36,597 bases of DNA from a virus. Shown here one piece after another: positions 3,193 through 30,732 of the stretch (positions are counted from its first letter, which is position 1; every line of letters begins with the position of its first letter). The translations under genes were made by a program, and so were the position numbers. The notes below the pieces were generated by a model. The model was not told where the DNA came from, searched no databases, and saw nothing but the letters and a program-made list of their open reading frames with translations. The stretch lies in IMG/VR virus record IMGVR_UViG_3300017735_000035, positions 1 to 36,597 of that record; one strand, given 5' to 3'.

Positions 3193-4554
3193 ATGAAAGT
3201 ACCTAAACTAAAATATGCAGTAGGCTCAGTAGCTCAAGCAGCAGCAGAGGGTGCCGATTCATTGTTGTCTGAAGCTCGTAAGGATGTGGTGGCTGCTCGT
3301 GAACCAGAGCCAGCAGTATCTCCTGAAATTGAAGAGCTTGCAGAAGCTGCATCTAAAGTAGAAGCAAGCCCAGATACACAAGCCTCTGAAACAGAAGTAA
3401 ACATGAAGGACACTACTAAGCTTGTAAACTCTTTTGAGTTTCAAGGCGGCAACAAGAAAATGGACAAGGCTTTCATTATGGAGTCTCTGGGCGAAGTAGC
3501 TGACTCTCCTATTGTTGAGTCTAAACAATCTATTGCTGAGTTTATTACTGACCTTCACCGTGTACAGTTGGAGCAAGAGTCTAAGCCCTTACTATCTCCT
3601 AAAGACTTTAAAAAGCTGACTAGCTTTGCAAGTACTGAAGAGCGCATGGAAAAGAAAGAAGGCGGTGAAGTATCTGACGTAGATAAATACATTAGTCTAT
3701 ACGGACAAATGGAACAGTCTATGGACAAAGCAGAAACCCCTGAAGATAAAAAAGCAATTTATGAGCGTTGGTCTGAGGTAGAAAAAACATTTGACGGTAA
3801 TATTATTAGTGCTGCTTTACAGAAGATGGATTCTGAAAGTGAAGGACGAGAAGGTAAATTTATAGGCGGCTTACTCGGAGCAATTGTAGAAGAAGTAACA
3901 TCTTCTAAAGGAACTACTACTGAGCCTGTAGGTCAAGAATCTGAAGCAAGTATAAGCAACCTTGAAGGCCCTGACCCAATTGCTGCGGCTAACAACGCTC
4001 CAATTTCTAATACAGGCTTTGCGGAAGGTGGTTCACTTATGGCTCCCGATATGCCCGTAGATACTTATGATAATATACCACCAGAGGAAATGGAAGCCGT
4101 AAAAGCTACACAGCTTCCAGATGCTGAGATGGAAGATGAGTACGCAGGCTTTGTACTAAACGAAGCGCTGTCCCCAGACGACCAAGATTATTTAATAAAT
4201 GCTCTCGAAGGCGATGAGCGTTTAGGGCAAATCTTTGATAACATCATGGATATTGCCGGAGAATTCGCTGGTGAGGGAGCTGTAAAAGGCCCCGGCACTG
4301 GTACATCAGATTCGATACCCGCAAGGTTGTCGGATGGTGAATTTGTTTTCACCAGAAAAGCAACCGACCAAATAGGCACAGATAAGCTTCAGGCTATGAT
4401 GGATGATGCAGAACGTGCTTATGATGGCGGTGTAATGAAAAAGTACGCAGGCGGTAGCATACTTGATGGCGTTATGGAGATGGAAGACCCTGATGAAGGA
4501 GTCCATAATCAAATGCTAAGCTCGAATCCAATGCCTAGTGTACGAAACCGATAA
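3193..4554 (+). CDS. Acidic virion/assembly protein with SDSIPA motif
   Basis: The 453-residue protein lies between portal and scaffold, with a GAGGAA site before its ATG. It is acidic and rich in Ala, Glu and Ser. The first 120 residues look disordered, followed by a helical middle (about 90-230). A conserved block near residues 365-395, GPGTGTSDSIPARLSDGEFV, matches a motif I know from phage tape-measure and other structural proteins; its function is not established to my knowledge. FAEGGSL (4018-4038) and YAGGSIL (4444-4464) are copies of a GG-motif found elsewhere in this phage. The position suggests a head or neck component or an assembly factor. I cannot assign a firm role, and a protease or decoration function cannot be excluded. 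Confidence 0.7.
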   Translation: MKVPKLKYAVGSVAQAAAEGADSLLSEARKDVVAAREPEPAVSPEIEELAEAASKVEASPDTQASETEVNMKDTTKLVNSFEFQGGNKKMDKAFIMESLGEVADSPIVESKQSIAEFITDLHRVQLEQESKPLLSPKDFKKLTSFASTEERMEKKEGGEVSDVDKYISLYGQMEQSMDKAETPEDKKAIYERWSEVEKTFDGNIISAALQKMDSESEGREGKFIGGLLGAIVEEVTSSKGTTTEPVGQESEASISNLEGPDPIAAANNAPISNTGFAEGGSLMAPDMPVDTYDNIPPEEMEAVKATQLPDAEMEDEYAGFVLNEALSPDDQDYLINALEGDERLGQIFDNIMDIAGEFAGEGAVKGPGTGTSDSIPARLSDGEFVFTRKATDQIGTDKLQAMMDDAERAYDGGVMKKYAGGSILDGVMEMEDPDEGVHNQMLSSNPMPSVRNR

Positions 4555-15510: not shown

Positions 15511-18500
15511 ATGATTAAAGCTCGACAAACTTTAAAAAACTTGCAAGCTAGTCGCATACGAGCACAAGCTTACGGCGGGGGATTGCAGTATAATTACGGC
15601 TCTGGTGGAGGCGGTGGCGGTGGCGGCAGCATGGAAGGCTCTACTGTTTATGGCTATAGTACTCCGGGCGGCAGCTATAACAATGCTGGTGTAGGACAGT
15701 ACAGTCATACAAACTTTGGAACTCCGGCTGGTGTTGGCTCAACTTATTCTGGCGGAGGTTATGGTGGAGGAAGCTCTAGCGGCTACGCCAGTGCTCCGGC
15801 CCCTAAAGAAGAAGAGCCAGAAGTAAACGAAGTAATAGTAGAAGCTGAACCTTTACCACCAGAAGACGACCCAGAACCTATTCTTGTTTCAGAAAATAAA
15901 GAAACAGGTGTAAATATATATGATGCTCAACCTACTATGACTGAAGGTGGCTCTAGTACAAACGATAAAGAAACTGAAGACAAAGAAGAAGAAACAGATT
16001 CTTCAGAAGAAGAAGAAAACTCAGAAGATACTGAAGACGACGGAGACAGCAGTATGGCAAATACAGAAGGCAAAGAACTTCAAAACGGAAATGGTTATGG
16101 TGGTGGAAACCCACCCGGCGGCGGCGGCCCAGTCGGAGGTGGTTCAGAGCAAGAAGGTACTGGTGCTCCAATTAAAATTGAGCAAACAGCTCCTGAGTAT
16201 ACTATTCCAGAAATGGAAGCTGTAAAAGCTAGTGCATATGGAATGACTACAGCTAAAAAAGATATTCAATCTGTAGGCGATGCTGGCACTGTAACTGTAG
16301 GCGAAGAAGTTTCTGCTCCCGACATGGGCGCAACTGCGGAACAAGCAGCTCCAGATAAAGTAGGCCCCGCAGCAAAAGTTGAGGGCGCTAAGTTTGATGC
16401 TTCTTTAGTCGGCACGGGCGCTGATGTTACAGCAGCTCAAGGACAACTTTCTCCAGAAGCTGTAGCTAGAGCAGAAGATGCAAAGCTTAGTGAAAGAGCC
16501 GTTGCAGCACAAAGAGATACTCAAGCTGAAAGAGAAGCTCAGGCAGGCAACGTAGTTTTTGATGTTGACTCAGGAGCCTACGTAAACAAAGTAAGCGGTA
16601 AGACTGCCTCTGTTGAAGAAGCTAAAGCTGCTGAAGCTCAAACACGTAAAGCTATTACAGACGACACTCTTTCTGAAGGCGAAGCCGCTAAAATTGTAGA
16701 TACTGTAGGCTTTGAAGCTGCACAGCGCAGAACAGTTCAAGGCACAGCAGCTAAAGGTGCAGCGGCTGGAATGCTTGCAGAAGTTGGTGAACTTCCTCCA
16801 GAGATTACAGCGGCGATTGTAGAAGACCCTGCAACTGTTGAAGCTGCTATAGACGAACAACCTGTAGAAGTAAGAGCTGCCGTTGCAGCACTGCCCACAG
16901 AAGCTTTAGTATCTTCACAAATGGAAAGCTTGCTGGGTGGACTTGAAGACGGTAAAACTCCTGCGTGGGCTAAACCAGCACTTGCGGCTGTTGAAGCTAA
17001 CTTAGCTAGACGGGGAATGAGCGCTTCTAGTGTTGGCCGTGATGCAATGTTTAATGCTATTATTCAGAGCGCAATGCCAATGGCTCAAAGCAACGCTCAA
17101 GCTTTGCAGCAGCGAGCAGCTCAAAACCTAAGCAACGAGCAACAAGCTAACATGTCTACAGCAACACTAGACATGCAGAGACGCATGGCTAACCTTTCTA
17201 ATCAACAAACAGCCAACTCTCAAACAGCTCAGATGGCTCAGCAAATGGCTACAATGCAGAGCCAGTTTAGACAAGATGCCGTAATGACTACTGCACAGAT
17301 GCAGCAGCAAACACGTACTCAAAACCTTGCTAATCTTCAAGAAGCTGCTAAAGTTACTGCTATGAATGAGCAGGCTATGAGAGCGCAGAACTTGGGCAAT
17401 GAGCAGCAGATTGAACTGGCTAATATGCAGTACATGAATGCTACTGAATCCGAAAACATGTCGGCAGTTCAACAACAGCGTCTAGTTGAAATGCAAACAG
17501 CCGCAGATTTCTTGTCTAAGAATGCTGGATTCAAACAACAGATGGAGCTGGCTAATCTGTCTAATGACCAGCAAATGAGGCTTGCTAACTTAACAGCTTT
17601 AAATCAAGCTGAATCTGAAAACCTTAGTGCTGCACAGCAAACAGAGCTTGCAAACTTAAATAATCGTATGCAAACTAATATGCTTCAAGGCAAGATTGCA
17701 GCCGAAATGAATCAAGCTCAGCTGACTGTTGACCAGCAAAGAGCAGTTCAAAATGCTTCAATGGTAGCTAATGTAGATTTAACTAAGTTTAATGCAGCAC
17801 AGCAAGTAGAACTAGCTAATAGTAAGTTTATGCAAACAATGGTTGCCGCAGAGTTCAGTGCGGAGCAGCAGGCAGCAATACAAAATGCAACTGCTTTGGC
17901 TTCTTTAGATATGGCTAATCTCGATAAGAATACTAGGCTTGCAGCACAAAATGCTCAGTCATTTTTACAAATGGATATGTCTAATCTAAGCAATAGGCAG
18001 CAAGCAAACATAATGAAGTCTCAAAACCAGCAGCAAGCAATGCTAAGCGACCAAGCAGCTACTAATGCATCAAGACAGTTTGCGGCAGCTAGTCAACAAC
18101 AAGCAGACCAGTTTATGTCTAATCTTGGTGTACAGATAGAGCAGTATAATTCTTCTGCTGCTGCGGCCCGTGAACAGTTTAATGCTACTGAAAAAAATAG
18201 AATGGCCGCTATAGATGCAGGAAACGAGTTACAAGCACAACAGTTTAATAATCAATTAGCTGTAGATGTGCAAAAGTTTAACGAACAAGCAGACTTTCAG
18301 CGTGACCAGTGGAATGCAGCAAATGCACAAGCTGTTGAGCAGTCAAACATTCAGTGGCGCAGACAAGCTAATTTAGCTAACACAGCAGCACAGAATGCAG
18401 CTAACCAGCAAAACGTGCAGATTGCATACAATATGACATCTCAGGAGCAGACTCAACTGTGGCAGCAGCTACGTGATGAAGCAGCTTACATACGGCAAAA

Positions 18501-18633
18501 CTATGAAAACGAACAGCAACGTAAAGCTCAGATGATTGCAACTGCTATTGGTAATGAATCAGTATTTAAGAAAGCAGGTGATGCAGAGTCGTTTATTGCT
18601 TCAATAATTAGTTCAATAAGTGGAACAGGCTAA
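15511..18633 (+). CDS. Gly-rich/Gln-rich long virion protein, putative ejection protein
   Basis: This protein has 1040 residues. Residues about 23-80 are Gly/Ser/Tyr-rich, 95-190 strongly acidic, and 195-215 again Gly-rich. A helical Ala-rich part (about 290-490) follows, with pairs such as ELPPEITAAIVEDPATVEAAI. From about 500 to 1000 it is Gln/Asn/Ala-rich with repeated NLSNxQQxxLAN-type units roughly every 30-40 residues, compatible with a very long helix or coiled coil. ANLARRGMSASSVGRDAMFNAIIQSAMPMAQ near 495-525 is a block I recall from marine phage structural proteins. It opens a run of five genes that resemble an internal ejection set. The long helical part loosely recalls T7 gp14, but homology cannot be shown here. 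Confidence 0.7.
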   Translation: MIKARQTLKNLQASRIRAQAYGGGLQYNYGSGGGGGGGGSMEGSTVYGYSTPGGSYNNAGVGQYSHTNFGTPAGVGSTYSGGGYGGGSSSGYASAPAPKEEEPEVNEVIVEAEPLPPEDDPEPILVSENKETGVNIYDAQPTMTEGGSSTNDKETEDKEEETDSSEEEENSEDTEDDGDSSMANTEGKELQNGNGYGGGNPPGGGGPVGGGSEQEGTGAPIKIEQTAPEYTIPEMEAVKASAYGMTTAKKDIQSVGDAGTVTVGEEVSAPDMGATAEQAAPDKVGPAAKVEGAKFDASLVGTGADVTAAQGQLSPEAVARAEDAKLSERAVAAQRDTQAEREAQAGNVVFDVDSGAYVNKVSGKTASVEEAKAAEAQTRKAITDDTLSEGEAAKIVDTVGFEAAQRRTVQGTAAKGAAAGMLAEVGELPPEITAAIVEDPATVEAAIDEQPVEVRAAVAALPTEALVSSQMESLLGGLEDGKTPAWAKPALAAVEANLARRGMSASSVGRDAMFNAIIQSAMPMAQSNAQALQQRAAQNLSNEQQANMSTATLDMQRRMANLSNQQTANSQTAQMAQQMATMQSQFRQDAVMTTAQMQQQTRTQNLANLQEAAKVTAMNEQAMRAQNLGNEQQIELANMQYMNATESENMSAVQQQRLVEMQTAADFLSKNAGFKQQMELANLSNDQQMRLANLTALNQAESENLSAAQQTELANLNNRMQTNMLQGKIAAEMNQAQLTVDQQRAVQNASMVANVDLTKFNAAQQVELANSKFMQTMVAAEFSAEQQAAIQNATALASLDMANLDKNTRLAAQNAQSFLQMDMSNLSNRQQANIMKSQNQQQAMLSDQAATNASRQFAAASQQQADQFMSNLGVQIEQYNSSAAAAREQFNATEKNRMAAIDAGNELQAQQFNNQLAVDVQKFNEQADFQRDQWNAANAQAVEQSNIQWRRQANLANTAAQNAANQQNVQIAYNMTSQEQTQLWQQLRDEAAYIRQNYENEQQRKAQMIATAIGNESVFKKAGDAESFIASIISSISGTG

Positions 18634-18648
18634 GAGGGTACAAAAAGC

Positions 18649-19836
18649 ATGGGATTTTTTAAAAAAGTATTTAAAAAAGTTAAGAAAGGTTTTAAAAGCA
18701 TTGGCAAAGGGATTAAGTCTGTTTTTAAAAAAATTGGTAAGTTTATGGGCAAGATAGGCATTGTAGGCCAGTTGGCTCTTATGTTTACTCCTGTAGGTGC
18801 TATGATGGGTAATATGTTTGCGAGTATAGGCAACGTAGCCGGACAAGCATTTAGAGGCGTTACAGGCGCTTTAGCTCAAGGCGGAAAGATTGCCCAAGCC
18901 GCAGGTAAAGTTCTTGAGGCAGGAGGAAGCTTTGCAAAAGCAGGACACTCTGCGTTTAAGACTGTGACTGAAGGCGTTACTACTTTTATAAGAGAGTTTA
19001 GTGGAGCTGCATTAAATAAAATGGGAATAAGCACTGATATTGTTAGTAAAGACTTTACTGCTGCTTGGAACGCTACTCAAGATTCCGTATTAAAAAACTC
19101 TAAAAATATAATGGTTAATTTTGAAAACGCTATTAACGGCAGGATGCCTACTGCGGCTCAACAGGCTGCTTTAGATGCTAAGAAGGCTACGGCTGAAATA
19201 ACTAAATCCGATTATGTTCAAAGCAAAACCAAGGCGCTGCAAGACCAAGCATCTAAGTTTCCTGATTCTATAGATGAGCGTTTTAAATCTTCAGATGACT
19301 TTAGCTCAAAGGCATCTAGTGATATGCCGCAACAAACCTCGTTGGGTTCTCAGTCATCTTCAGCCATTAACCCTATTACAAACAAGCCTTATGACCTAAG
19401 CAACACTATGGAAAACTACGGGTTAGAGACAGCGCCGCCTCAAAAAAGTTTGTTAGGTAAAGTTACAGACTACACTTCAACAAAATATAAAGAGTTTCTT
19501 GATGATAGACCTCTCGGTCAGGCCCTTACTGAAGAGGGCGTAGATTATCTTAGCGAGCAAGTGGCTCAAATTCCAGACGAAATGACAAAGCTAGGTAAAC
19601 AGCGACTATATCAAAACATAGGTTTAGAAGCTAAGCCTGAAGCTGCTAATGTATACTATGGAGCTGTTGCTCAGTTTGATACAGCCCCAGCAGGAACTTA
19701 CGGCTCTCCAGAAATTAACGACAGAGCCATGCAAGTTCAGCTTGCGGGTACTGATTTTTATAACTTGGCACCCTTTGGAGCTGGCGCTAATTTCTATACA
19801 CAAACAATGGCTAGAGGAATTGGAGGTACAGCGTAA
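18649..19836 (+). CDS. Virion protein with cationic amphipathic N-terminus, putative membrane-active ejection protein
   Basis: This protein has 395 residues. The first 37 residues are dominated by Lys, Phe, Gly, Ile and Val in a pattern like that of pore-forming antimicrobial peptides (FFKKVFKKVKKGFKSIGKG). A Gly/Ala/Met-rich hydrophobic stretch comes next (about 38-90, with IGIVGQLALMFTPVGAMMG). The rest is mixed helical and polar and ends in a Gly/Ala-rich tail. I recall this N-terminal type from marine cyanophage and podovirus structural genes. It sits among ejection-protein candidates, so insertion into the host inner membrane during DNA entry is a reasonable inference. Its stop overlaps the next start (TAATG). 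Confidence 0.7.
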   Translation: MGFFKKVFKKVKKGFKSIGKGIKSVFKKIGKFMGKIGIVGQLALMFTPVGAMMGNMFASIGNVAGQAFRGVTGALAQGGKIAQAAGKVLEAGGSFAKAGHSAFKTVTEGVTTFIREFSGAALNKMGISTDIVSKDFTAAWNATQDSVLKNSKNIMVNFENAINGRMPTAAQQAALDAKKATAEITKSDYVQSKTKALQDQASKFPDSIDERFKSSDDFSSKASSDMPQQTSLGSQSSSAINPITNKPYDLSNTMENYGLETAPPQKSLLGKVTDYTSTKYKEFLDDRPLGQALTEEGVDYLSEQVAQIPDEMTKLGKQRLYQNIGLEAKPEAANVYYGAVAQFDTAPAGTYGSPEINDRAMQVQLAGTDFYNLAPFGAGANFYTQTMARGIGGTA

Positions 19837-20435
19837 TGGAAGAAGAAGTATATATGGAAGAAGTGTCTAAAATGAACAGACCTATTCCGGGCCAGTCGCT
19901 TACTACAGACCCGGAAAATCCTGCTCCATATGAAAGACCTCCAGAGTTTACTAATGTACACGAAGCTAGTATGTATATGTGGGACTTTGTAACTGAAGAT
20001 GAAACCTACATAGCTTTAATGACTGGAATATCTAAGGGTGTCCCAGTAATGAGCATTGTACAGGTCTTATTATTTGACCAGTTTCAACAAGGCAAGTTTA
20101 ATCCTGACTTGATGATGATGCTTGCTGAGCCTTTAGCTTATATGCTTATTGCACTTGCTGAGCGTTTAGACCTAGACATTAAGATTGACAACGATGAAGA
20201 AGAAGGCGATGTCTTTGGAGTTGATATGGAAGAGGCTTCTTTGCAAAAACTTAGAGATGCCGCTACAGAAAGCGGTATGCTTCCACAAGGTTTTTTAACT
20301 GAAGAAATGACTGCTGATATAGTAGAGCTTCCGGAAGTTAGCTTGTTAGAAAAACCAGAAGCTCCCTTAGAATCACCAGTAGAAGAAACAACACCTGCAC
20401 AACCTAGCCTTATGGCACAACCTGAAGGACAGTAA
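19836..20435 (+). CDS. Conserved phage virion-associated protein (PIPGQSLT type)
   Basis: The 199-residue acidic protein begins in the stop of its neighbour. An internal Met at residue 13 precedes the conserved opening NRPIPGQSLTTDPENPAPYERPPE, which I recall as the N-terminus of a conserved protein in marine podo- and myoviruses; the true start may be that Met. A helical region (about 48-110) with ISKGVPVMSIVQVLLFD and MMMLAEPLAYMLIALAERLDLDI follows. The last third is acidic and Pro/Glu-rich, probably disordered. Its function is not known to me. Its place between two putative ejection proteins points to a virion component. Confidence 0.7.
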   Translation: MEEEVYMEEVSKMNRPIPGQSLTTDPENPAPYERPPEFTNVHEASMYMWDFVTEDETYIALMTGISKGVPVMSIVQVLLFDQFQQGKFNPDLMMMLAEPLAYMLIALAERLDLDIKIDNDEEEGDVFGVDMEEASLQKLRDAATESGMLPQGFLTEEMTADIVELPEVSLLEKPEAPLESPVEETTPAQPSLMAQPEGQ

Positions 20436-20437
20436 AC

Positions 20438-22381
20438 ATGGCACAAGATTCAATTGCATACGGTGAAAGTCTTTTAGCTGACATCCGTAAAAGGAATGAT
20501 AAGCTTAGAAGCCAAGCAAAAAAAGAACGAAACAAAGACCTATGGAAGTCTGTTGCTGTAAAAATAGGGTCAGATGTTGTTTCAGATATTTTTTCTCAAA
20601 GGCAAGAAGCTTTTTTAGAAAATGAAAAAGCTGCTCAAAATAAAATTATGCTCGGACAGCTCGAACAAGAAGCAAAAGATTGGAACACTACTTTTCAAAC
20701 TGCCCAGCAAGCTCCGGGAGGAGAGTTAAAGTACTTGCAGGGTGTTGCTAATTCATCCGTTGAGGCACATCTTAGAGGTCAATATGGGCCTAAAGGAACT
20801 TATAACGAAGCCGATTTTCAGATGTTATTAAACAAAACATCTAAAGCATACTTGCCTACTCTGCAAGAGCAGTGGGAAAAACGAAAAGAAGCTAACAAGG
20901 TTTATTTGTCTAGCGGAAACAAAGCAGCCTATGAAAAATACTTAGAGAATAAAAAAGAAGAAGTAGGTTTTACGGGAAGTATTATAAAAGGTTTAGGGCT
21001 AGACGGACTTACCGGCAAGCCTGCTGATGGTATACTTTCAACCAGCACATTCATAGATAGAGCAGAAAAACAAAGGGAGTTGATAAACAGCTACAACAAA
21101 GCTAAAAACGCAGGTGTAGCTGAGTTTATAGCTGAAAACTACACAGAAAAAGATTTAAAACTTGATGTTCCTCCACCAGTAGTAAGCGACACAGCAAGAA
21201 AAATAAAAGTTTTTACTGCAACTGGAGATTCTGTTGAGCACGAAATATATAAAGTTACCCAAATGCGTGAAAATGGTCAGACCGATACGCTCGGTTTTGT
21301 TTATGCAGACGGAAGTAAATATAACTCTGCATCTCCTGAAACATTAGGAGTACAGCAAGAGTTTATTAATAACGCAGCAATACAAATTAAAAAAGATAAT
21401 ATTCAGATGGGAAATGTTCACTTGAGAACAGTGGATGAATCGAGATATGAAGACATAAAAGAATTTGTTAAAGAAAAGCATGGTAAAAAATATTTTAATA
21501 CTGACCCTAATTTCGAAGTTGAAATGATGGAAGAATATAAAACAATAGCAGCATTTGTAACTCAAGGTGGCTACCAAGCTAAATTTGAAGGGTGGGGAAC
21601 TTTAGGTGATGGTGCTGAAATTCAAGCTTCTATGATTTACGATTCTTTAAAATCTGACCTTTCACAAGGAATGCCTATTTCGGGGTTAGGTAATCCTTTT
21701 AACACGATGTTTAAAATAGACACGATTTCAGACAGACTTGCTTCTGGGAATTTAGGAATTTCTAAAATTGTTTCTAACGGTGTATTTTTATATGATAACT
21801 TAAAAGGTATTCAAGACGTAGAAAAAAGAAATGATATTGAAACCCAGTTTTTTAGCATGAACTATTTTACTGGAGAAGGAGCACAAGAAGCTCCAAGTAG
21901 AGTAAGAGCTACTAAATCTTTTCTTGCTGTAAAATACGCTGTAGATAATAAACTAAACCCTAGAGAATATAAGGGCGGTAAAGCCGGAATGCTTGCTTAT
22001 GCTGAAGCTAAAGTAATAGAAGAGCTGCAAAGCCAGAACTCTTCAACAGCAAAACAAACTATTAAGGGCGTTAAAGCTGCTACACCTAAAACTGGTGTGG
22101 AAGGCGTAACAACTTCAGGTCTGTCTGAAGTTCCTGCTCCTGAAGGAAAGCCTAAAGTAAAGACAGCTAGAGGCTTAAAGTGGTCTTCTCCTCAGCATAA
22201 AGAGTATTCAGAGCTTAATAAAGCCTCAGAATTGATAGCAAAGTTAGAAGCTGAAGCAGCCGACCCTAAAATAATAGAAGCGCCTAAGGCTAGTAAAAAT
22301 TTAAAAAGAAGAATCGCAGTAGCAAAAGCTAACTTTGTAGCTTTAAGAAATAAGTATTTAGAAAGCTATAGCAATCTTTAA
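20438..22381 (+). CDS. Putative internal virion (ejection) protein, 647 aa
   Basis: The protein starts three bases after the previous stop, with GAAGGA upstream. It is mostly helical, Lys/Glu/Ala-rich, and lacks membrane segments. The N-terminus (SIAYGESLLADIRKRNDKLRSQAKKERNKDLWKS) and a charged coiled-coil part (about 30-180) are followed by a mixed domain. Its length and position just before the giant protein recall T7 gp15 (747 aa), which forms the periplasmic tube of the ejectosome with gp16. I see no sequence motif that proves this, so the role rests on size, order and composition. Codon use is AT-richer than in the capsid genes. Confidence 0.65.
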   Translation: MAQDSIAYGESLLADIRKRNDKLRSQAKKERNKDLWKSVAVKIGSDVVSDIFSQRQEAFLENEKAAQNKIMLGQLEQEAKDWNTTFQTAQQAPGGELKYLQGVANSSVEAHLRGQYGPKGTYNEADFQMLLNKTSKAYLPTLQEQWEKRKEANKVYLSSGNKAAYEKYLENKKEEVGFTGSIIKGLGLDGLTGKPADGILSTSTFIDRAEKQRELINSYNKAKNAGVAEFIAENYTEKDLKLDVPPPVVSDTARKIKVFTATGDSVEHEIYKVTQMRENGQTDTLGFVYADGSKYNSASPETLGVQQEFINNAAIQIKKDNIQMGNVHLRTVDESRYEDIKEFVKEKHGKKYFNTDPNFEVEMMEEYKTIAAFVTQGGYQAKFEGWGTLGDGAEIQASMIYDSLKSDLSQGMPISGLGNPFNTMFKIDTISDRLASGNLGISKIVSNGVFLYDNLKGIQDVEKRNDIETQFFSMNYFTGEGAQEAPSRVRATKSFLAVKYAVDNKLNPREYKGGKAGMLAYAEAKVIEELQSQNSSTAKQTIKGVKAATPKTGVEGVTTSGLSEVPAPEGKPKVKTARGLKWSSPQHKEYSELNKASELIAKLEAEAADPKIIEAPKASKNLKRRIAVAKANFVALRNKYLESYSNL

Positions 22382-22411
22382 GCAAAAACCTAACCAAAAG
22401 GTACAGCATTA

Positions 22412-25400
22412 ATGAAAGAAGAAAACTCAAACACTTATACAGGTTCAGCTTACGATGGCTCTGATTGGGAATTATATACAGAAGGAGAGGGAAGTGAACG
22501 AGGAATTATGGAATCTGGTGAAAATGTTTTTACTCCACCAGATTACTCAGTAACTGATTGGGAAAACGATGAAGTAGTTTTATCAAGTTTTGAAATCCTT
22601 ACAGATTACTTAGCTGAAGAACAAGGGTTAGGCAGCTATATCATTGACCAAGCAGCTACTGGTCAAACTACTGACCCCGCTGAGTACATGCGTGACCTAA
22701 CTATGCGTTTAGGTGCGCCGCTTGCTCTTGCTAAAGCAATGGAAAATGCACCTGAAAATGTAAAGAAAGCCTTTAGAACAATGAAAACTCGTTGGGACAA
22801 AGCTGAAATTTCAGGCTTAGGGGAAAGATTAGAGGCTGTTGTAGACTATTCTGCGGATGTTGTGTTTAGTCCAGAAAATGTATTGACCCTTGGCTCACTG
22901 CTTTCGGGAGTAACTACAGGAGGTACAAGTGCCGCTGCGGGATTAGCAGCACGTAAAACTGGACAACAAGCAGCCTCAAGAACTCTTATGAATGCTGTAA
23001 GAGCTACTGCTGCTGCACAATCTAAAAATCCTTATAAGGCTTCTGCACTTATTGGTGCTACTTACGGAGGAGCAGACGCGCACATACAACAAGAATTAAA
23101 CATTGCTGCGGATATTCAGGATGATTATAGTGTTTCAGATACAGTTTTTGGAACGGCTGCAAGTGCTGTAGCTGGCATGGGGCTATATGCTGCTGGCTCT
23201 AAATTAGCTAATAAATATTTTAGGGACGGAACTAAACCTGCTAAAGAGCTTTCAGTTAGAGAAGCTAATCAGTATTTTGATGAAGCTCTTGAGGGTGACT
23301 TTATTCCTGCATCCGGCGGAAATGTAATCGAAGAAGCCTTGCGTATTAGCGGCCCTGAAGGTTCAATAGCAAAAACAGTAGAAGGCGCAGATGATGCACT
23401 TAATTCAGCAGCTTCTAAGTTTGCCGAAGATTTAGGTGGCGGCGAAAAAACACGTAAAGAAATTCTAGCAATGATTAGAGCTGCCGCTGATGCTGAAAGC
23501 ACTGTAGAAGGACAGACAAGCCGTATAAAGCAAGGTTTGTATACTATAGCTTCTGACCTATCAGGAAACTTTTTAGGTAAGGGAGCAGGCATTCTGTCGC
23601 CTATTACAAAGTTTTCTGGAACAGCAGCGCAACTACAGAAAAAACTAAGCCATGAGTTTGGAATAAAATATAAAGTACAAGATGAAGTAGTTCAAAAAGA
23701 TTTGTCAGAAGTACAGCGCGAAGTTACCGGAAAGTTCAATGAACGCTTCCGTGTTATTGTTGACTCTCTTTCGTTAAGTGAGATGGACACTAAACTTGCT
23801 ACAGATATAAACGATGCATTAAGCAAAAGCATGCGTAGCGAAAAAACAATTAATCATCCTCAGTTTAATGATGAAACAAACTCAGCTATTGCAAAGGCAG
23901 CCACAGAAGCAAAAGCTTTGTATAATGAAATGGGTGTACAGCTTAATGACATCGGTGTTATTGATAAGCTGGTAGATAACTATGTTCCTCGTATGTGGAG
24001 CCGTAGCGCTATTGAGGCTAACCCCAATAAGCTTTTAGACTTGTTTGTGCAGAAAGCCGGTATGAGCAAAGCAGAAGCTAGGCGAACCGTAAACAATATG
24101 TTGGATGTTAAGAATCAGGTAGACCAAGGAACTTCAAGCGGATATTTCTTTTCATCCAAACGTAAAATTGATACCATTGGAAACGATGCAGACTTTGAAG
24201 AGTTTTTAAACTCTGATGTTTTGGGCGCACTACACGCTTATACTTATCAGGCGGGTAAGTCTGTAGCTAAGCACCGTGTGTTAGGTGTAAATAACTTTGA
24301 ACAGTTTAAAGGCTTTTACGTCAATCGCATACGCAAAGAGATGACTGATAACGGAGAAAACTTTACGCCTAAAATAGAACGTCAACTAGAAAAACTATAT
24401 CGTACTGCTACAGGTGAAGGTATGGAAAGATATGGCAAAACTGCTCAAACAGCGGTAGATGCTTATAGCTTTACTAACCGTGTAGCTTTGTTGGGATTAG
24501 CTACACTGTCTAGTTTGACAGAAGTCTTTATTAATTTAGGTAAAGCAGGTGCGGTAAACTCTGTAAAAGGCTTTAAAGAAGCTTTAAGTACTTCACATAA
24601 AACAATTACTAAAGACATGCAGTCTAAGCTAATGACAGAAAATGGCTTAACCGCAAAAGAAGCTTTGTCTGAAATGCGTAACTTTAGCATCCACGTAGAC
24701 CAAGCGCTTGCACAGGTAGGCGATAGGCTGGCAGGTGATGAGTTAGTTTCTGAAGGAATGCAAACTGCAAGTAATAAGTTTTTTCGTATTACACTTCTTG
24801 ACCAGTGGACTAAGTTTGTACAGAATGTTTCTTTTGCAAGCGGTAAAAATCTTATTAATGATAATATTACAAAGCTTGCTAGTCGCTACAAAAATAAAAC
24901 TCTAGACTCAGATGGTGAAGTATTAGCTGGCGAACTAGCAGAGCTAGGCATTGACTGGAAGAAAGCGGTTGACTGGCATAATAGCGGCGCTAAAACAGAC
25001 AATGATTTTTATAAGACTGATTTCTTAGGAGGTGCCGCACGTTATACAAACTCTGTAGTATTGCAGCCTACTGCTATGTCGGGCATTAAGCCTCTATTGT
25101 TTTCAAACCCTAAAACTGCGGTAATGTTCCAACTGCTTAGCTATCCTGCTGCGTTTACCAACACTGTGCTGAAAGGTGCCACTAAAGCTATGATAAAGGC
25201 CCCTAAGCGCAATGCGCCTAAGCTCTTAGCTGCGGGTGCCATAATGACTGGAATGGCTCGTTGGACTAACTACGTCCGTACAGGAGGGGAAAACGAAAAA
25301 AATAAAACTGAGTTTGAAATTACTAAAGAAGCTATTGCACGTTGGGGCGGCAACGGTTTGTTGCTTGACAGCTTAAAACGTGCTCAAACTGCTGCTAAGT

Positions 25401-28400
25401 ATTCAAAAAGTAACTTAGCTTATGCTACTCTTCCATTTGGCCCTGCGGCTTCAGATGCTTTAAGTTTAATACAGCAAGGAATTGTACCTACTCTTGGAAA
25501 CAAAGTACCTTTAGTTTCTGGTAGTTATTTTGGTAAACAAATTTTAGGTGACGATTACGTTACTCATTATAGAAGAAGTTTAAGAAAAACTCAAAAAGAT
25601 GTATTTGGCGAATTTATTCCAGAGTTTGAAAAGTCTGCACCGGTTCCTCGCTATGCTACCGGAAGCGTAGTACGTGGTGCAAGCGCAGCATTTAAAGGGC
25701 TTATGAATAAAGCTTCTGAAATTATGGAGCCTACTGAACTAAGCAATATAAACGCTTCTAAAATTTCAGAACTTACAGAAGGAATGATAGACGGAAAAGC
25801 TATTGAGTCTGTAGCTCGTAATATAGATTCTGAGATTACATCTGCTCAAGCTCTTGGAAATATTTCTTTTGCTGATTACGAACTGTATGAATTAGCTGAA
25901 GCTAATGTTGTTCAAGCTATGAAATATAATCAAAAAACTCAAGAAGAAATAATTTCTAATCCTTTATTCTTAGAAATTGTAGAAGAGACTGACGCTTTAA
26001 AGTCTAATCAAAAACTATATGACTTTCAAAAAAGCTTAGGTTATGATGATGAACAAATACTAGCGCTTAAAACTATTGAGTCTATAGATAAAGACACAGG
26101 TCAAAACAATATAATTTTTGAAAAAGTAAATAATCAAGTTAAAAATATCAAAGCTTTTTACGACAAGGCTAAAATCAAAGTATCTCCAGAAGAAATTGAA
26201 AAAGCTTCTGTAAATAAATATGATGAAGATTCTTTAGATTTTATGCATGACTACTTTAGAAATGAAATTAAAAAAACCTTTCCGCTGTTAAGCGATAAAG
26301 GAGCTTTTGAACTATCTAAAAATGCTATAGTTAAAGTAGCAGCCAAAGGAGATGTAAACTTTTCACGTTTTAAAACTCCTAACATTTCTGCTAAGGCTGA
26401 AGAAAGTGTATTGCTTTCTCCGGAAGCCAGAAAGAAAGCTCAAGAAAAATATGTTGAAGACTCTGAAAACAAAAATACTGTGTACAGGGTTGTTTCAAGC
26501 TATGAGAACGCAGACTCTAATATTTCTTTTCCGTTTGCTCGTGAAGTAGGAACTCACGTAGGAACAAAGGGCGCAGCAGATAAAGTTATGATTAGAGACT
26601 TAGCTTTAGAGTTTACAGGTAATGATGAAAAAGCAGCAATGTCTTTAATGAAACAATACATTGGAACTTCTAAAAGTCCTAAACCTGAAGCTTATGACAA
26701 GTTCTTTAACTATGTTTCATCTGAGTTAAAGAAAAGCGATAAGACTATTAGGCCGTACACTATGCAGGAAGGCTACATTAATGTTAAAAAGCCTTTAATT
26801 ATTGAGGAAGACATGCCTAGCTGGAGAGCTGAATATATTATTCAAGACATGGAGTCTATTTCAACAGTAATTAAAGCTGCTAAATCTCAAGGAGCTAAAA
26901 TATCTGAAGAAGATATTGACATGATAGATATTCTTCAGATTGAATCAGATGATTATGTTAAGTACATAGGGGCAGACACCAAGCCATACTCAACTCCGCT
27001 AGAAAAAGTTGAGATGGATTTACAACGTGCTGAGTTTAATATGAAGTTTAAAGACTTTATAAACAAACTAGGGTTTGATTCTATTAAATATCGTAACACT
27101 GCCGAGCCTAGTTACGCTGGAGAAGACCCTTATTCTTATATACTCTTTGAGCCTGAGCAGTTTAAGCTGTCTTCTTCAAAGTCTTTTAATACAAAAGACC
27201 CAAGACACGGCTTTGTTTTGGGTGGTGCTGTAAAAACCATTACTAAAGGAGCTAAAGCTTTTGCACCTAAAATGGATTCAGGTTTCTTTAGTGCTGCACA
27301 CAAAGCAGCTTTACAGTTAGAAGGCTCTAAGCCAAGACCGGGACAGTCTTTCTTGAACGAGTTAAAGAAAAAAGAAAACGTAAGCGATGAAGAGCTTGAG
27401 TGGACTGGCGCTGTTGAAAAGTTCGGCAACAGCAACCCTGCAACTAAAGAAGAAGTCCAGCAGTTTTTTGAAGACAATGACTTCGACTTTGAGGTTCAGG
27501 TAGGTCGCAGTAAGCCAGAAAAAGTAGAAGCAATAGACGATATGCCTACACTTGTAGGAGATGAGCTAGACGAAGATGATGCTTTCTGGGCTTGGGCAGA
27601 AGAAAACTATCCGCACGATGTAGATATGCTGGATGACTTGGTTGATAACCCAGAACAGTTTGACGCTTGGTTTAATTCTAAACAAGAAGAGTTTTTAGGT
27701 AAAACTGAAGGTGACTTTGTAACTCAATCGGCACACTTAGACTATTCGTTTGAAGGAGCAAATACACAGAACTACCGTGAGCTTGTAATTTCAGTTCCAG
27801 ATAAATTCAAAAAAGTTGATTTAGATTATGTAAACACGATACATCATCCCGAAAGCAAAAACCAAATAGCTCATGTGCGCTTGGCTGATGTTGAGCAAAC
27901 TGATGATGCGTTTACTAAAACTTTGTTGATTGATGAAATACAGTCAGATGCCCATCAAACTGCTACAGGTAAAGATGGTAGAGGTTATTTAACAACAGAA
28001 AAAGCAAACGCAAAAGCTTTAAAGCGAAAAGAACTAGAAGAGCGCAGGCAAAAAATAAATAACTCAGACATTTCTGAAGAAGAAAAAGATAAACTATTAG
28101 ATGAACTCTTAGCAGATGCTCAAAATGCAGGCGTAGTATTTGATTCGTCTGATGTTCCAGACCTTCCACTTAAAAAGGACAAGCAATGGGGCGCTGTTGG
28201 CCTCCGTCAGGCTATGAAGGTAGCAGCGGAAGAAGGCTACGACCAAGTTGCTTTAACTACTGGGCGTTTACAGGCTGAAAGAAATAGAAAAATAATGGAA
28301 GCTACAGACACTACTTTAATAAAAACTCCTAGTGGACGTTATCAAATAGACTCAGATGTTCCGGTAGCAAACGAACAAGCCATTTACAATACATTTGAAG

Positions 28401-29962
28401 AAGCCGAGTCTGAATTAAAAAAATATTTAGGGGAAAAGAACGCACAAAAACTTATTAAATCTGTTCCAGAAAAAGACGGCGATAGAACTTATTGGACTTT
28501 AGACGAACCTCACACAGTAAAGAGAGGCGGCCAAAAGTATATGGACTTTTATGACCGCACTCTACAAAAGATTTGGAAGCGAGACTTTGCTAAGAAGTAC
28601 GGTGTAGATATTAAGATGGTGGAGTACAAGCAAAACGATAAGACTGTACAACTTCCAACTCTTGAAATGACTGAAAAGATGAGGGAAGATATTCTCAAAG
28701 GATTAAAGATGTTTGCTGAAGGCGGCTATGTAATTCAAAAAGGCGACACGCTTTCTCAAATTGCTAGAGACGAAGGAATGACTATAGCTGAAATAGCTAA
28801 GCTAAATAACATTCAAGACGTAAACAAAATATATGCTGGACAAACATTAACTTTCGGTCAGGATATGTCTACTGATATATCTAATAAAGCTGAAATAATA
28901 AAAGAATCAGAGCCTGTCATAGAATCTAAGCAGGATGTGTTTGAAGGTGTACCTAAAAAAATAAGCGACATTACATCTAGCATAGCAGAAAAGTCTGATG
29001 TTGTTATTGACACTGTAGAATCAACAGCCGATAAGCTGTCAGATGTTTCTAAAGATGTACAAAGTACAATATCAGAAACATTTGATGACGTTAAAGAAAC
29101 TGTTAGCGGTGCTACAGGCCGTACACTTTCAGCATTAAAAAAGCTAGTGGGTTCTGACTTTAGTTCTAGAGGTCGTACAGCAGAGAACACAACAGGAGCT
29201 ACAGCAGCGCCTAAGCCTACATCCATTATGGGTGATATGACTATGGAGCAGGTACGCGAAGCTAACACATCTGATGCACCTGACCTGTCAGATGTTAAAA
29301 TGCCAGACGTAGACTTTAGTTCTAAAGGGCGTACAGCAGAAAACACTGCGGGTACTACAGAAGAGCCTAAAGAAATAAAACTACCAGCAATAGAGTTTAA
29401 GCCTAAAGATATTGAGATAGAATCTGAAAAGCAGATGGAAGACCAAGAAAGTCTTGTAGATACGCTAAAAGGTTTTTATAATGCTTCACAATCTCAAGTA
29501 GCTAAAAACCTTATTGCGTTTTTTAACCCGCTTGCTGGTGATAAAACAGAAGACGATTACAACCCACAAGTTGTTGACGCGCTAGGATTTGCTGCTGCTA
29601 ATGCTTTGAAGAAAAACAAAAGCACTATCGACTACGGTGACTATAACTTAAAAGAATCTAATGTTAGGGCGCAGGTCGGAAGCGCAGCGCAAAGAAAGCG
29701 TGACAATTTAGAAGCTCGTATGAAGTCTGGTGACATCACACCCACAGAAGAAGCAGCATTTTCTGTAGGTGGAGGAGGCGTAACTGTAGAAGGCGACAAG
29801 GTTTACGTTACAGACACATACGACTTTAGCAAACTAGAAAGACAAATAAACTCTGTTCTTCCTGATGACTATGCAAGGCTTAGAGACTGGATAAGCAACT
29901 ACAAGGGTAATGAATTTAAGAGCAAGATATTTGTTGGCACATTGAAGGACTTAGGGCTATGA
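22412..29962 (+). CDS. Giant polyvalent ejection protein with channel-like, ART-like and LysM domains
   Basis: The protein has 2516 residues. Residues about 1-100 are acidic. Hydrophobic Gly/Ala stretches (about 150-190, 245-267, 687-713, 903-960) and a large helical body with DNYVPRMW near 520 suggest a membrane-interacting ejection part. Residues about 1357-1590 look like an ADP-ribosyltransferase domain of polyvalent phage proteins: YRVVSS...GTHVGT at the start, YINVKKPL in the middle, and LGFDSIKYRN...YSYILFEPEQFKL at the end. Residues about 1770-2100 form a second recurrent phage domain (QNYRELVISVP, LLIDEIQSDAHQ, GYDQVALTTGRLQAER). A LysM peptidoglycan-binding repeat spans 2106-2148. 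GG-motifs mark the borders. Its stop overlaps the peptidase start (ATGA). It probably takes the T7 gp16 role, with added host-directed functions. Confidence 0.82.
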   Translation: MKEENSNTYTGSAYDGSDWELYTEGEGSERGIMESGENVFTPPDYSVTDWENDEVVLSSFEILTDYLAEEQGLGSYIIDQAATGQTTDPAEYMRDLTMRLGAPLALAKAMENAPENVKKAFRTMKTRWDKAEISGLGERLEAVVDYSADVVFSPENVLTLGSLLSGVTTGGTSAAAGLAARKTGQQAASRTLMNAVRATAAAQSKNPYKASALIGATYGGADAHIQQELNIAADIQDDYSVSDTVFGTAASAVAGMGLYAAGSKLANKYFRDGTKPAKELSVREANQYFDEALEGDFIPASGGNVIEEALRISGPEGSIAKTVEGADDALNSAASKFAEDLGGGEKTRKEILAMIRAAADAESTVEGQTSRIKQGLYTIASDLSGNFLGKGAGILSPITKFSGTAAQLQKKLSHEFGIKYKVQDEVVQKDLSEVQREVTGKFNERFRVIVDSLSLSEMDTKLATDINDALSKSMRSEKTINHPQFNDETNSAIAKAATEAKALYNEMGVQLNDIGVIDKLVDNYVPRMWSRSAIEANPNKLLDLFVQKAGMSKAEARRTVNNMLDVKNQVDQGTSSGYFFSSKRKIDTIGNDADFEEFLNSDVLGALHAYTYQAGKSVAKHRVLGVNNFEQFKGFYVNRIRKEMTDNGENFTPKIERQLEKLYRTATGEGMERYGKTAQTAVDAYSFTNRVALLGLATLSSLTEVFINLGKAGAVNSVKGFKEALSTSHKTITKDMQSKLMTENGLTAKEALSEMRNFSIHVDQALAQVGDRLAGDELVSEGMQTASNKFFRITLLDQWTKFVQNVSFASGKNLINDNITKLASRYKNKTLDSDGEVLAGELAELGIDWKKAVDWHNSGAKTDNDFYKTDFLGGAARYTNSVVLQPTAMSGIKPLLFSNPKTAVMFQLLSYPAAFTNTVLKGATKAMIKAPKRNAPKLLAAGAIMTGMARWTNYVRTGGENEKNKTEFEITKEAIARWGGNGLLLDSLKRAQTAAKYSKSNLAYATLPFGPAASDALSLIQQGIVPTLGNKVPLVSGSYFGKQILGDDYVTHYRRSLRKTQKDVFGEFIPEFEKSAPVPRYATGSVVRGASAAFKGLMNKASEIMEPTELSNINASKISELTEGMIDGKAIESVARNIDSEITSAQALGNISFADYELYELAEANVVQAMKYNQKTQEEIISNPLFLEIVEETDALKSNQKLYDFQKSLGYDDEQILALKTIESIDKDTGQNNIIFEKVNNQVKNIKAFYDKAKIKVSPEEIEKASVNKYDEDSLDFMHDYFRNEIKKTFPLLSDKGAFELSKNAIVKVAAKGDVNFSRFKTPNISAKAEESVLLSPEARKKAQEKYVEDSENKNTVYRVVSSYENADSNISFPFAREVGTHVGTKGAADKVMIRDLALEFTGNDEKAAMSLMKQYIGTSKSPKPEAYDKFFNYVSSELKKSDKTIRPYTMQEGYINVKKPLIIEEDMPSWRAEYIIQDMESISTVIKAAKSQGAKISEEDIDMIDILQIESDDYVKYIGADTKPYSTPLEKVEMDLQRAEFNMKFKDFINKLGFDSIKYRNTAEPSYAGEDPYSYILFEPEQFKLSSSKSFNTKDPRHGFVLGGAVKTITKGAKAFAPKMDSGFFSAAHKAALQLEGSKPRPGQSFLNELKKKENVSDEELEWTGAVEKFGNSNPATKEEVQQFFEDNDFDFEVQVGRSKPEKVEAIDDMPTLVGDELDEDDAFWAWAEENYPHDVDMLDDLVDNPEQFDAWFNSKQEEFLGKTEGDFVTQSAHLDYSFEGANTQNYRELVISVPDKFKKVDLDYVNTIHHPESKNQIAHVRLADVEQTDDAFTKTLLIDEIQSDAHQTATGKDGRGYLTTEKANAKALKRKELEERRQKINNSDISEEEKDKLLDELLADAQNAGVVFDSSDVPDLPLKKDKQWGAVGLRQAMKVAAEEGYDQVALTTGRLQAERNRKIMEATDTTLIKTPSGRYQIDSDVPVANEQAIYNTFEEAESELKKYLGEKNAQKLIKSVPEKDGDRTYWTLDEPHTVKRGGQKYMDFYDRTLQKIWKRDFAKKYGVDIKMVEYKQNDKTVQLPTLEMTEKMREDILKGLKMFAEGGYVIQKGDTLSQIARDEGMTIAEIAKLNNIQDVNKIYAGQTLTFGQDMSTDISNKAEIIKESEPVIESKQDVFEGVPKKISDITSSIAEKSDVVIDTVESTADKLSDVSKDVQSTISETFDDVKETVSGATGRTLSALKKLVGSDFSSRGRTAENTTGATAAPKPTSIMGDMTMEQVREANTSDAPDLSDVKMPDVDFSSKGRTAENTAGTTEEPKEIKLPAIEFKPKDIEIESEKQMEDQESLVDTLKGFYNASQSQVAKNLIAFFNPLAGDKTEDDYNPQVVDALGFAAANALKKNKSTIDYGDYNLKESNVRAQVGSAAQRKRDNLEARMKSGDITPTEEAAFSVGGGGVTVEGDKVYVTDTYDFSKLERQINSVLPDDYARLRDWISNYKGNEFKSKIFVGTLKDLGL

Positions 29963-30321
29963 GCGAATTTAAATACTTTGAACTAGAAGACTTTAATTGC
30001 CAAGAAACTGGCGAAAACGAGATGTCAAGGGACTTTATACACAAGCTTGACGAACTGCGGGAGGCATGCGGCTTTCCGTTTATTATCACGAGTGGTTACA
30101 GAAGTCCAAATCACTCCATTGAAAAACGTAAGGAGAAAGCAGGAAAACATGCCCAAGGTATTGCAGCCGACATTAAAGCGGCAAATGGTTATCAAAGATA
30201 CAAGATTGTGGAAGAAGCTATTAAGATGGGATTTAATGGTATTGGAGTCGCTCGTACTTTCATCCATGTGGATAGCAGGATTTGTGGAGCTGACAAAGCT
30301 CCTGTGATGTGGTGTTATTAA
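29959..30321 (+). CDS. Peptidase M15-type zinc peptidoglycan peptidase (endolysin)
   Basis: The 120-residue protein is a compact M15_3-family enzyme that cuts peptide cross-links of peptidoglycan. The zinc ligands of this fold are visible: His64 and Asp71 in GKHAQGIAADI and His103 in FIHVD, with Asp105 after it. ITSGYRSPNH upstream and MWCY at the C-terminus are also family signatures. It has no signal peptide, so it needs a holin to reach the wall, and one follows 12 bases later. The start overlaps the giant gene's stop by four bases. It may also act as part of the virion, since it is translated together with a LysM-bearing ejection protein. Confidence 0.9.
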   Translation: MSEFKYFELEDFNCQETGENEMSRDFIHKLDELREACGFPFIITSGYRSPNHSIEKRKEKAGKHAQGIAADIKAANGYQRYKIVEEAIKMGFNGIGVARTFIHVDSRICGADKAPVMWCY

Positions 30322-30333
30322 GGGGATATACTT

Positions 30334-30732
30334 ATGTTGCAATCATTGATTGGGCCGGTTACTGGACTGTTAGATAAATTCATAGAAGATAAAGACAAAA
30401 AGAATGCTATTGCTTTTGAGCTTAGTACGATGGCAGAAAAACACGCACAAGAACTTGCTAAAGGCCAGATTGAAGTAAACAAAGCTGAAGCAGCGCACAA
30501 AAGTTTGTTTGTTGCGGGTTGGCGACCAGCCGTTGGGTGGGTTTGTGTGTTTGGCATGGCCGGGAATTTTATTACTATTCCAATTACTAACATGATTTTA
30601 GAGCTTCTTGAATCAAGTGTCACTGTTCCTTTAATACCTACTGGAGAAATGATGCCTGTATTAATGGGCATGTTAGGTTTAGGTGCTATGCGAACCGCAG
30701 AAAAAGTTAAAGGCGTTCAAAGGGAGAAGTAA
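30334..30732 (+). CDS. Three-helix holin (Holin_3TMs type)
   Basis: The 132-residue protein starts after an AAGGGGA site. An N-terminal helix is followed by a charged KGQIEVNKAEAAHKSLFVAGWRPAVGWVC segment, then membrane helices around residues 50-75, 80-98 and 105-120, ending LMGMLGLGAMRTAEK. The AEAxHxSLFVAGWRPxxGWVC pattern and the GMLGLGxxRTxEK end are the signature of the holin family first described for gene-transfer-agent release. It follows the peptidase immediately, so the pair is the clearest lysis cassette here: holin opens the membrane, peptidase cuts the wall. Confidence 0.88.
   Translation: MLQSLIGPVTGLLDKFIEDKDKKNAIAFELSTMAEKHAQELAKGQIEVNKAEAAHKSLFVAGWRPAVGWVCVFGMAGNFITIPITNMILELLESSVTVPLIPTGEMMPVLMGMLGLGAMRTAEKVKGVQREK

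What the first reader, a model, noticed from the sequence alone, without database searches (positions are those of the whole stretch)
26480..28860. Ejected giant protein carries an ADP-ribosyltransferase-like domain, a second polyvalent domain and a LysM repeat
Residues about 1357-1590 follow the pattern I know from ART domains of large polyvalent phage proteins, ending in GFDSIKYRN...YILFEPEQ. Another recurrent domain lies at 1770-2100 and a LysM at 2106-2148. The carrier looks like an internal virion protein with membrane-type segments, so these domains could enter the host with the DNA. That would parallel T4 Alt, an injected ADP-ribosyltransferase that modifies host RNA polymerase. A B12-dependent podovirus delivering such an enzyme would be a new early-takeover system.
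Basis: partly seen in the sequence, partly recalled or inferred. Interest (0 to 1): 0.75.

Follow-up and report, generated by a model that had tools for sequence, protein, structure and literature searches.

The report
Divergent ADP-ribosyltransferase-like domain in phage injection protein
A marine short-tailed phage carries, in the giant protein it most likely injects with its DNA, a domain related to known phage ADP-ribosyltransferases but with an altered active site; injected ADP-ribosyltransferases were already proposed for such phages, and the fresh points are the changed active site and the swapping of this whole injection cassette between otherwise near-identical phages.

Summary
Residues 1340-1615 of the 2516-aa protein (window 26429-27256) form a domain conserved in all 20 homologues aligned; residues ~1771-2105 are a second, widespread phage domain; 2106-2147 is a true LysM. 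Homology to ART-PolyVal is supported: profiles built only from outside ART-PolyVal sequences find the family (E 1e-4 to 1e-8; reversed decoys at most one weak hit), and the AlphaFold model matches ART-PolyVal-like viral proteins. However, PF18760's cut-off is not reached, no solved ART matches well, and the H-Y-D signature is not met: strand-1 His is Arg (R1359), strand-2 Tyr is His (H1382). Catalysis is open.

The carrier sits at the gp16 (last ejection protein) position of an HMO-2011-like podovirus; its core matches the last ejection-module gene of two other podoviruses. Ejection is likely but unproven.

Injected ARTs in podoviral polyvalent proteins were proposed in 2017, so the idea is not new. 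New here: the variant active site, and exchange of the ejection cassette, ART included, between phages with 99-100% identical portal, capsid and RNR proteins (ART then 32-34% identical). Verdict: new variant of a known kind.

The parts
22412..29962 (+). 2516-aa giant protein P0001, gp16-position ejection protein with C-terminal accessory arm
   Evidence: (PHROG 7348, 4828 bits; PHROG 6958 'virion structural protein' E 2e-16 at residues 688-921)
23954..25273 (+). residues 515-954, core shared with the last ejection-module gene of Pseudoalteromonas phage Slicky01 and (711-920) Vibrio phage Phriendly
   Evidence: BLASTP E 2e-12 and 1e-10 in a 14-protein set; profile E 4e-9 and 1e-12
26429..27256 (+). 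ART-PolyVal-related domain, residues 1340-1615 (motif part 1357-1590)
26486..26488 (+). R1359, at the strand-1 position held by His in most other ART-PolyVal domains
26555..26557 (+). H1382 (HxGT motif), strand-2 position held by Tyr or another aromatic in canonical ART-PolyVal
27077..27079 (+). D1556 of GFDS, invariant; most likely the Asp of the H-Y-D set
27104..27106 (+). E1565 of the NxxE loop motif, 19/20 Glu, 1 Asp
27134..27136 (+). S1575, invariant Ser directly before the last strand (SYILF)
27722..28726 (+). second polyvalent domain, residues 1771-2105 (conserved stretch starts near 1630); absent from one allele class of the protein
28727..28852 (+). LysM domain, residues 2106-2147
   Evidence: PF01476, E 3e-12
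29312..29959 (+). exchangeable C-terminal module, residues 2301-2516
20438..22381 (+). 647-aa protein, syntenic with the middle ejection-module gene (HTVC115P gp41, HMO-2011 gp23); no detectable sequence match to them
19836..20435 (+). 199-aa protein homologous to HTVC115P gp42, HMO-2011 gp24 and a Slicky01 173-aa protein
   Evidence: E 5e-24, 3e-6, 3e-25
15511..18633 (+). 1040-aa protein homologous to HTVC115P gp47 and HMO-2011 gp25
   Evidence: E 7e-66, 2e-36
29959..30321 (+). M15 peptidase, the likely endolysin
30334..30732 (+). holin (GTA_holin_3TM)

Best explanation
The protein is the last ejection (internal virion, gp16-position) protein of an HMO-2011-like marine podovirus. Its residues 1 to about 1340 are the ejection machinery; residues about 1340-2200 are an accessory arm that positional equivalents in other phages lack in part or whole. 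The arm's ART-PolyVal-related domain most likely enters the host with the ejected protein and acts there on a host target as a divergent ADP-ribosyltransferase with an R-H-D-(NxxE) set in place of H-Y-D. Shown: gene, domain, homology, synteny, conservation of the altered residues. Inferred: packaging and ejection (about 0.75), NAD-dependent catalysis (about 0.4), the target (unknown).
For: Homology to ART-PolyVal: held-out test with decoys; hhalign 97%, E 2e-10, C-terminal 43 columns only. Fold: AlphaFold pLDDT 80, pTM 0.79; 13 BFVD matches below 1e-3 and others slightly above, several named ART-PolyVal-like. Selected residues: R1359 19/20, H1382 18/20, D1556 20/20, N1562 20/20, E1565 19/20, S1575 20/20, Q1583 20/20, while allele classes share only 31-34% of the domain. 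The HxGT...GxDxxxYxNxxE...S[YW] layout recurs in unrelated phages that keep His in strand 1. Ejection context: gene order and homology with HTVC115P, HMO-2011, Slicky01, Phriendly; PHROG 6958.
Against: PF18760 cut-off not reached; the window's own domain is invisible to Pfam alone. No PDB match below 1e-3; PARP4 ART fragments only at E about 2. The strand-1 His is lost, a change expected to abolish or alter activity in H-Y-E enzymes (general knowledge of PARP-type ARTs). The homology by sequence rests mainly on the C-terminal half; the strand-1/strand-2 alignment rests on motif comparison through bridging sequences (L043, pT24, Tunturi_5). No virion proteomics.
Confidence: 0.45

Rival explanations
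1. The domain is a catalytically dead ART-like fold kept as a binding or structural module, for instance gripping a host protein, NAD/ADP-ribose, or a partner in the ejectosome.
For: Strand-1 His replaced in every member and strand-2 Tyr replaced; no acidic residue directly before the last strand (invariant Ser). The closest PDB fold match is a chain of the cyanophage A4 pre-ejectosome (9k3a_B, E 0.029, prob 0.82), which fits a structural role, though weakly.
Against: The replacing residues are themselves near-invariant across allele classes only 31-34% identical, including the Asp and the NxxE Glu; dead scaffolds usually lose such residues. R in strand 1 is normal for the R-S-E ART class (PMC5512222).
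Confidence: 0.35
2. The whole accessory arm works in the periplasm, with LysM holding peptidoglycan while the ejectosome crosses the wall, and the ART-like part has no cytoplasmic role.
For: Canonical LysM in the same arm; ejection proteins of podoviruses span the periplasm and can carry wall-degrading domains (PMC8954989).
Against: ART-PolyVal domains occur in many phage proteins without LysM, including stand-alone genes of pT24 and JA29; NAD is cytoplasmic. No muralytic domain was found in the protein.
Confidence: 0.15
3. The protein is an endolysin, as PHROG 7348 labels it.
For: PHROG 7348 carries the label 'endolysin'.
Against: The only lysis-linked feature is LysM; no lytic catalytic domain in Pfam or NCBIfam. 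The next genes are an M15 peptidase and a holin, a complete lysis pair.
Confidence: 0.03

Closest known systems
ART-PolyVal (PF18760) / Tox-ART-HYD2 domains of polyvalent phage proteins (Iyer et al. 2017, PMC5512222)
   Same: Homologous C-terminal half (nikNPl, GyDGi, yvvFdpnQIKS), similar predicted fold, same setting in giant late-gene proteins, often beside other effector-like domains.
   Different: Arg for strand-1 His, His for strand-2 Tyr; long helical insertions (276 aa against a 140-position model); below the curated cut-off.
HxGT-type ART-PolyVal domains (Tenacibaculum phage pT24 BPT24_156/157, Tunturi_5 ORF225, third domain of Dolichospermum phage Dfl-JY45)
   Same: HxG[TD], GxD[GS]xxY.N..E, S[YW] before the last strand.
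   Different: These keep His in strand 1; they are small single genes or jumbo-phage giant proteins, not podoviral ejection proteins.
T4 Alt
   Same: Works-like parallel: an ART injected with phage DNA; an Arg in strand 1.
   Different: R-S-E clade; no detectable sequence kinship here; a head protein of a myovirus.
Podoviral ejection proteins (T7 gp14/15/16; HMO-2011 gp22-24; HTVC115P gp40-42)
   Same: Same gene order and position; the small member is homologous; core of the large member matches Slicky01 and Phriendly counterparts.
   Different: Extra ART-like, second polyvalent and LysM domains between core and C-terminal module.
Hypervariable internal-virion-protein region of HTVC010P-type pelagiphages (cited in PMC10504331)
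   Same: Internal virion protein locus differs among otherwise similar marine phages.
   Different: Another phage type; no ART domain reported in the passages read.

Membership tests
ART-PolyVal / Tox-ART-HYD2 | Score over the curated PF18760 cut-off (31.2 bits) | tested here: not met
   Window: no match; best relative 20.6 bits
ART-PolyVal / Tox-ART-HYD2 | Homology detectable by profile | tested here: met
   Held-out profiles E 1e-4 to 1e-8 for relatives, decoys 0-1; hhalign 97%
ART-PolyVal / Tox-ART-HYD2 | ART fold | tested here: inconclusive
   BFVD: matches to ART-PolyVal-like proteins, 13 hits below 1e-3; PDB: nothing below 1e-3
ART-PolyVal / Tox-ART-HYD2 | His in strand 1 | tested here: not met
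   Arg 19/20, Asn 1/20
ART-PolyVal / Tox-ART-HYD2 | Tyr in strand 2 | tested here: not met
   His 18/20, Asn 2/20
ART-PolyVal / Tox-ART-HYD2 | Asp in strand 5 | tested here: inconclusive
   GFD Asp invariant 20/20, and it is the only well-kept Asp of outside ART-PolyVal members; that it is the Asp meant by Iyer et al. is inferred
ART-PolyVal / Tox-ART-HYD2 | NAD-dependent ADP-ribosyl transfer | not testable with these tools
   needs an assay
T4 Alt/VIP2 (R-S-E) ARTs | Detectable sequence kinship to an R-S-E family | tested here: not met
   No such family in Pfam or NCBIfam scans
T4 Alt/VIP2 (R-S-E) ARTs | Packaged in the head and injected | not testable with these tools
   no proteomics
Podoviral gp16-position ejection protein | Last gene of the small/medium/large ejection trio | tested here: met
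   Gene order and W199 homology in HTVC115P, HMO-2011, Slicky01
Podoviral gp16-position ejection protein | Homology of the large protein to other ejection-module proteins | tested here: met
   Slicky01 and Phriendly last genes; not detected for HMO-2011 gp22; HTVC115P gp40 only in the C-terminal module (hhalign 95.8%, no hit with hmmsearch)
Podoviral gp16-position ejection protein | Present in virions and ejected | not testable with these tools
   needs mass spectrometry and an ejection assay
LysM (PF01476) | Score over cut-off | tested here: met
   46.7 bits against 20.9
GNAT (for the second domain) | GNAT fold | tested here: inconclusive
   AlphaFold pLDDT 89; most of the top 50 PDB matches are GNATs (SSAT, Eis2, GNA1, Naa50), but each at E 0.5 or worse
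Endolysin (PHROG 7348 label) | A lytic catalytic domain | tested here: not met
   None in Pfam/NCBIfam; separate M15 peptidase downstream

The most novel reading that the evidence does not exclude
The HxGT-type ARTs use a changed active site (His in strand 2, loop Glu of NxxE), and the podoviral branch adds Arg in strand 1; this branch is an injected effector exchanged together with the ejectosome genes as discrete alleles between near-identical marine phages, driven by host counter-adaptation.
Probability: 0.25. Interest if true: 0.65.

Novelty: new variant of a known kind. Interest (0 to 1): 0.42.

Why it matters
Phages of the HMO-2011 type are abundant in the ocean and use short tails. If the injected arm is an active enzyme, it gives a testable case of host takeover before any phage gene is expressed, in a lineage where little is known of early infection. 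The discrete alleles, with capsid and RNR unchanged, offer a natural experiment on what in an ejectosome is under selection by the host. If the domain is dead, it is a clear example of an ART fold reused for binding.

Tried and rejected
Pfam, NCBIfam and PADLOC scans of the window's own ART region: nothing informative. PDB sequence profiles of the ART, second-domain and N-terminal alignments: chance-level hits only; the outside ART-PolyVal profile reaches PARP10 only at E about 1. DNA-level search of phage records: no match. Two genome-contig scans (ART and core): no relative in any bacterial genome held, so no host or prophage clue. I first took the residue after LF (E1580) as the catalytic Asp position; rejected because it is E/K/R in the family and not kept in outside members. 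I then took the residue before the last strand (the PARP E988-like place) as the site; it is invariant Ser here and variable outside, so it does not define ART-PolyVal either. PHROG 'endolysin' label rejected. A regex tally miscalled strand 1 and the NxxE columns in some rows because of flexible spacing; the alignment counts are used instead, and only for reading the printed motifs. Paper on the cyanophage A4 pre-ejectosome is not held.

Full report
What is there. The window holds the late half of a podovirus: terminase end, portal, capsid, tail proteins, an S74 tail fibre, a set of large late proteins, a 2516-aa protein at 22412-29962, an M15 peptidase, a holin, and a class II RNR on the other strand. 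The portal is 61% identical to Pelagibacter phage HTVC115P and about 50% to HMO-2011 and Roseobacter CRP phages; the RNR is about 60% identical to HMO-2011's. So it is an HMO-2011-like marine podovirus, probably of an alphaproteobacterium (inference).

The giant protein. It has 18 homologous loci in IMG/VR; no relative was found in bacterial genomes. In HTVC115P and HMO-2011 the structural module ends with a trio of about 170, 500-540 and 1130-1890 aa. The window has 199, 647 and 2516 aa in the same order. The 199-aa protein is homologous to HTVC115P gp42 and HMO-2011 gp24, and the 1040-aa protein to gp47 and gp25. Residues 515-954 of the giant match the last gene of the same kind of module in Slicky01, and 711-920 the last gene in Phriendly. 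I did not detect sequence kinship to HMO-2011 gp22, and HTVC115P gp40 matches only in the C-terminal module. Together this supports an ejection protein in the T7 gp16 position; virion presence is untested.

The ART-related domain. Residues 1340-1615 are conserved in all 20 aligned homologues, including an allele class that lacks the second domain altogether. Sequence homology to ART-PolyVal was tested without circularity: seven outside ART-PolyVal domains (A6) were used to build a profile, iterated only on sequences outside the family, then run on the family and on reversed family proteins. The seed profile hits 24 family domains (best 1.2e-4; window 0.0017), later rounds 23-28 (best about 1e-8), decoys 0-1. 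The window's own sequence drops out of the reported hits in later rounds, so its placement rests on its close relatives. hhalign gives 97% but over only 43 columns. The AlphaFold model matches viral ART-PolyVal-like models but no solved ART convincingly.

Active site. Iyer et al. (PMC5512222) define this clade by His in strand 1, Tyr in strand 2 and Asp in strand 5. Here strand 1 reads VYR (R1359, 19/20), strand 2 HVGT (H1382, 18/20), and GFDS keeps Asp (D1556, 20/20); N1562, E1565, S1575 and Q1583 are also kept. Domains of the same HxGT type in unrelated phages keep His in strand 1 (VVYH, VMYH), so the Arg is a mark of the podoviral branch. Some other ART-PolyVal-like domains have YRG in strand 1, so Arg need not mean loss of function. 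I therefore do not file it as a canonical ART-PolyVal member; it is a divergent relative whose activity is open.

Second domain and LysM. Residues 1771-2105 belong to a widespread phage domain with the pattern DEIQSDxHQ...GY...P..P..W...AAEEGYD...G..Q..RY...GG.GM..FYD. Pfam has no model that fits. The AlphaFold model is good (pLDDT 89); PDB matches are individually insignificant but mostly GNATs. A GNAT-like nature is a lead only. Iyer et al. note a GNAT family that typically neighbours ART in such proteins, which would fit. LysM is certain.

Allelic exchange. Against the L014 genome, the window's portal is 99%, capsid 100%, RNR 99%, M15 99% and C-terminal module 98% identical, but the 647-aa protein is 31%, giant core 59%, ART 32%, and the second domain is missing; several tail proteins lie between at 75-87%. 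Pairwise, phages with 97-100% identical RNR carry ART domains either 73% identical or more, or only 30-35% identical. L016, from another metagenome, repeats the L014 pattern, so chimeric assembly is unlikely. The breakpoint on the right lies near 29.03 kb, inside the giant gene. A hypervariable region with an internal virion protein is already reported for HTVC010P-type pelagiphages (PMC10504331), and mosaicism of ejection proteins is known (PMC8954989), so the phenomenon has precedents; that an ART-related domain is part of the exchanged cassette I did not find described.

Mechanism. Most likely: assembled in the virion as the large ejection protein, ejected ahead of or with the DNA, with the C-terminal arm reaching the cytoplasm and acting on a host target. 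Steps shown: gene, domains, homology, synteny, conserved altered residues, exchange. Steps inferred: packaging, ejection, catalysis, target. The strongest rival is a dead ART fold used for binding.

Verdict. New variant of a known kind.

Noticed in passing
window 20629-29030 against L014 (G003) and L016 (G005): The ejection cassette (647-aa protein and most of the giant protein) is strongly divergent between phages whose portal, capsid, RNR and lysis proteins are 97-100% identical; at least three allele classes (window-like, L012/L013/L014/L016, L009/L015).
   Followed up: yes
window 29357-29957 (residues 2316-2516): C-terminal module is exchanged independently: 96-98% identical to L004, L012 and L014, whose ART and cores differ, but unlike that of L001, which is about 95-98% identical in core and ART.
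   Followed up: partly
L125 and L127 (from the genomes of L015 and L012), ORF after the portal gene: A second, His-bearing ART-PolyVal domain is joined upstream of the homologue of window gene 3193-4554; the window gene starts after it and lacks it.
   Followed up: partly
L003:9224-9228: The giant ORF ends early and its last ~338 residues continue as a separate ORF; split gene or frameshift.
   Followed up: no
A4; window 27722-28726: Widespread phage domain (DEIQSDxHQ...AAEEGYD...GGxGMxxFYD) without a fitting Pfam model, possibly GNAT-like.
   Followed up: partly
L141 (Dolichospermum phage Dfl-JY45, 66403-73566): One giant protein with three tandem ART-PolyVal domains, of both the aromatic (WF) and HxGT types, two further ART-PolyVal matches downstream, and the second polyvalent domain.
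   Followed up: partly
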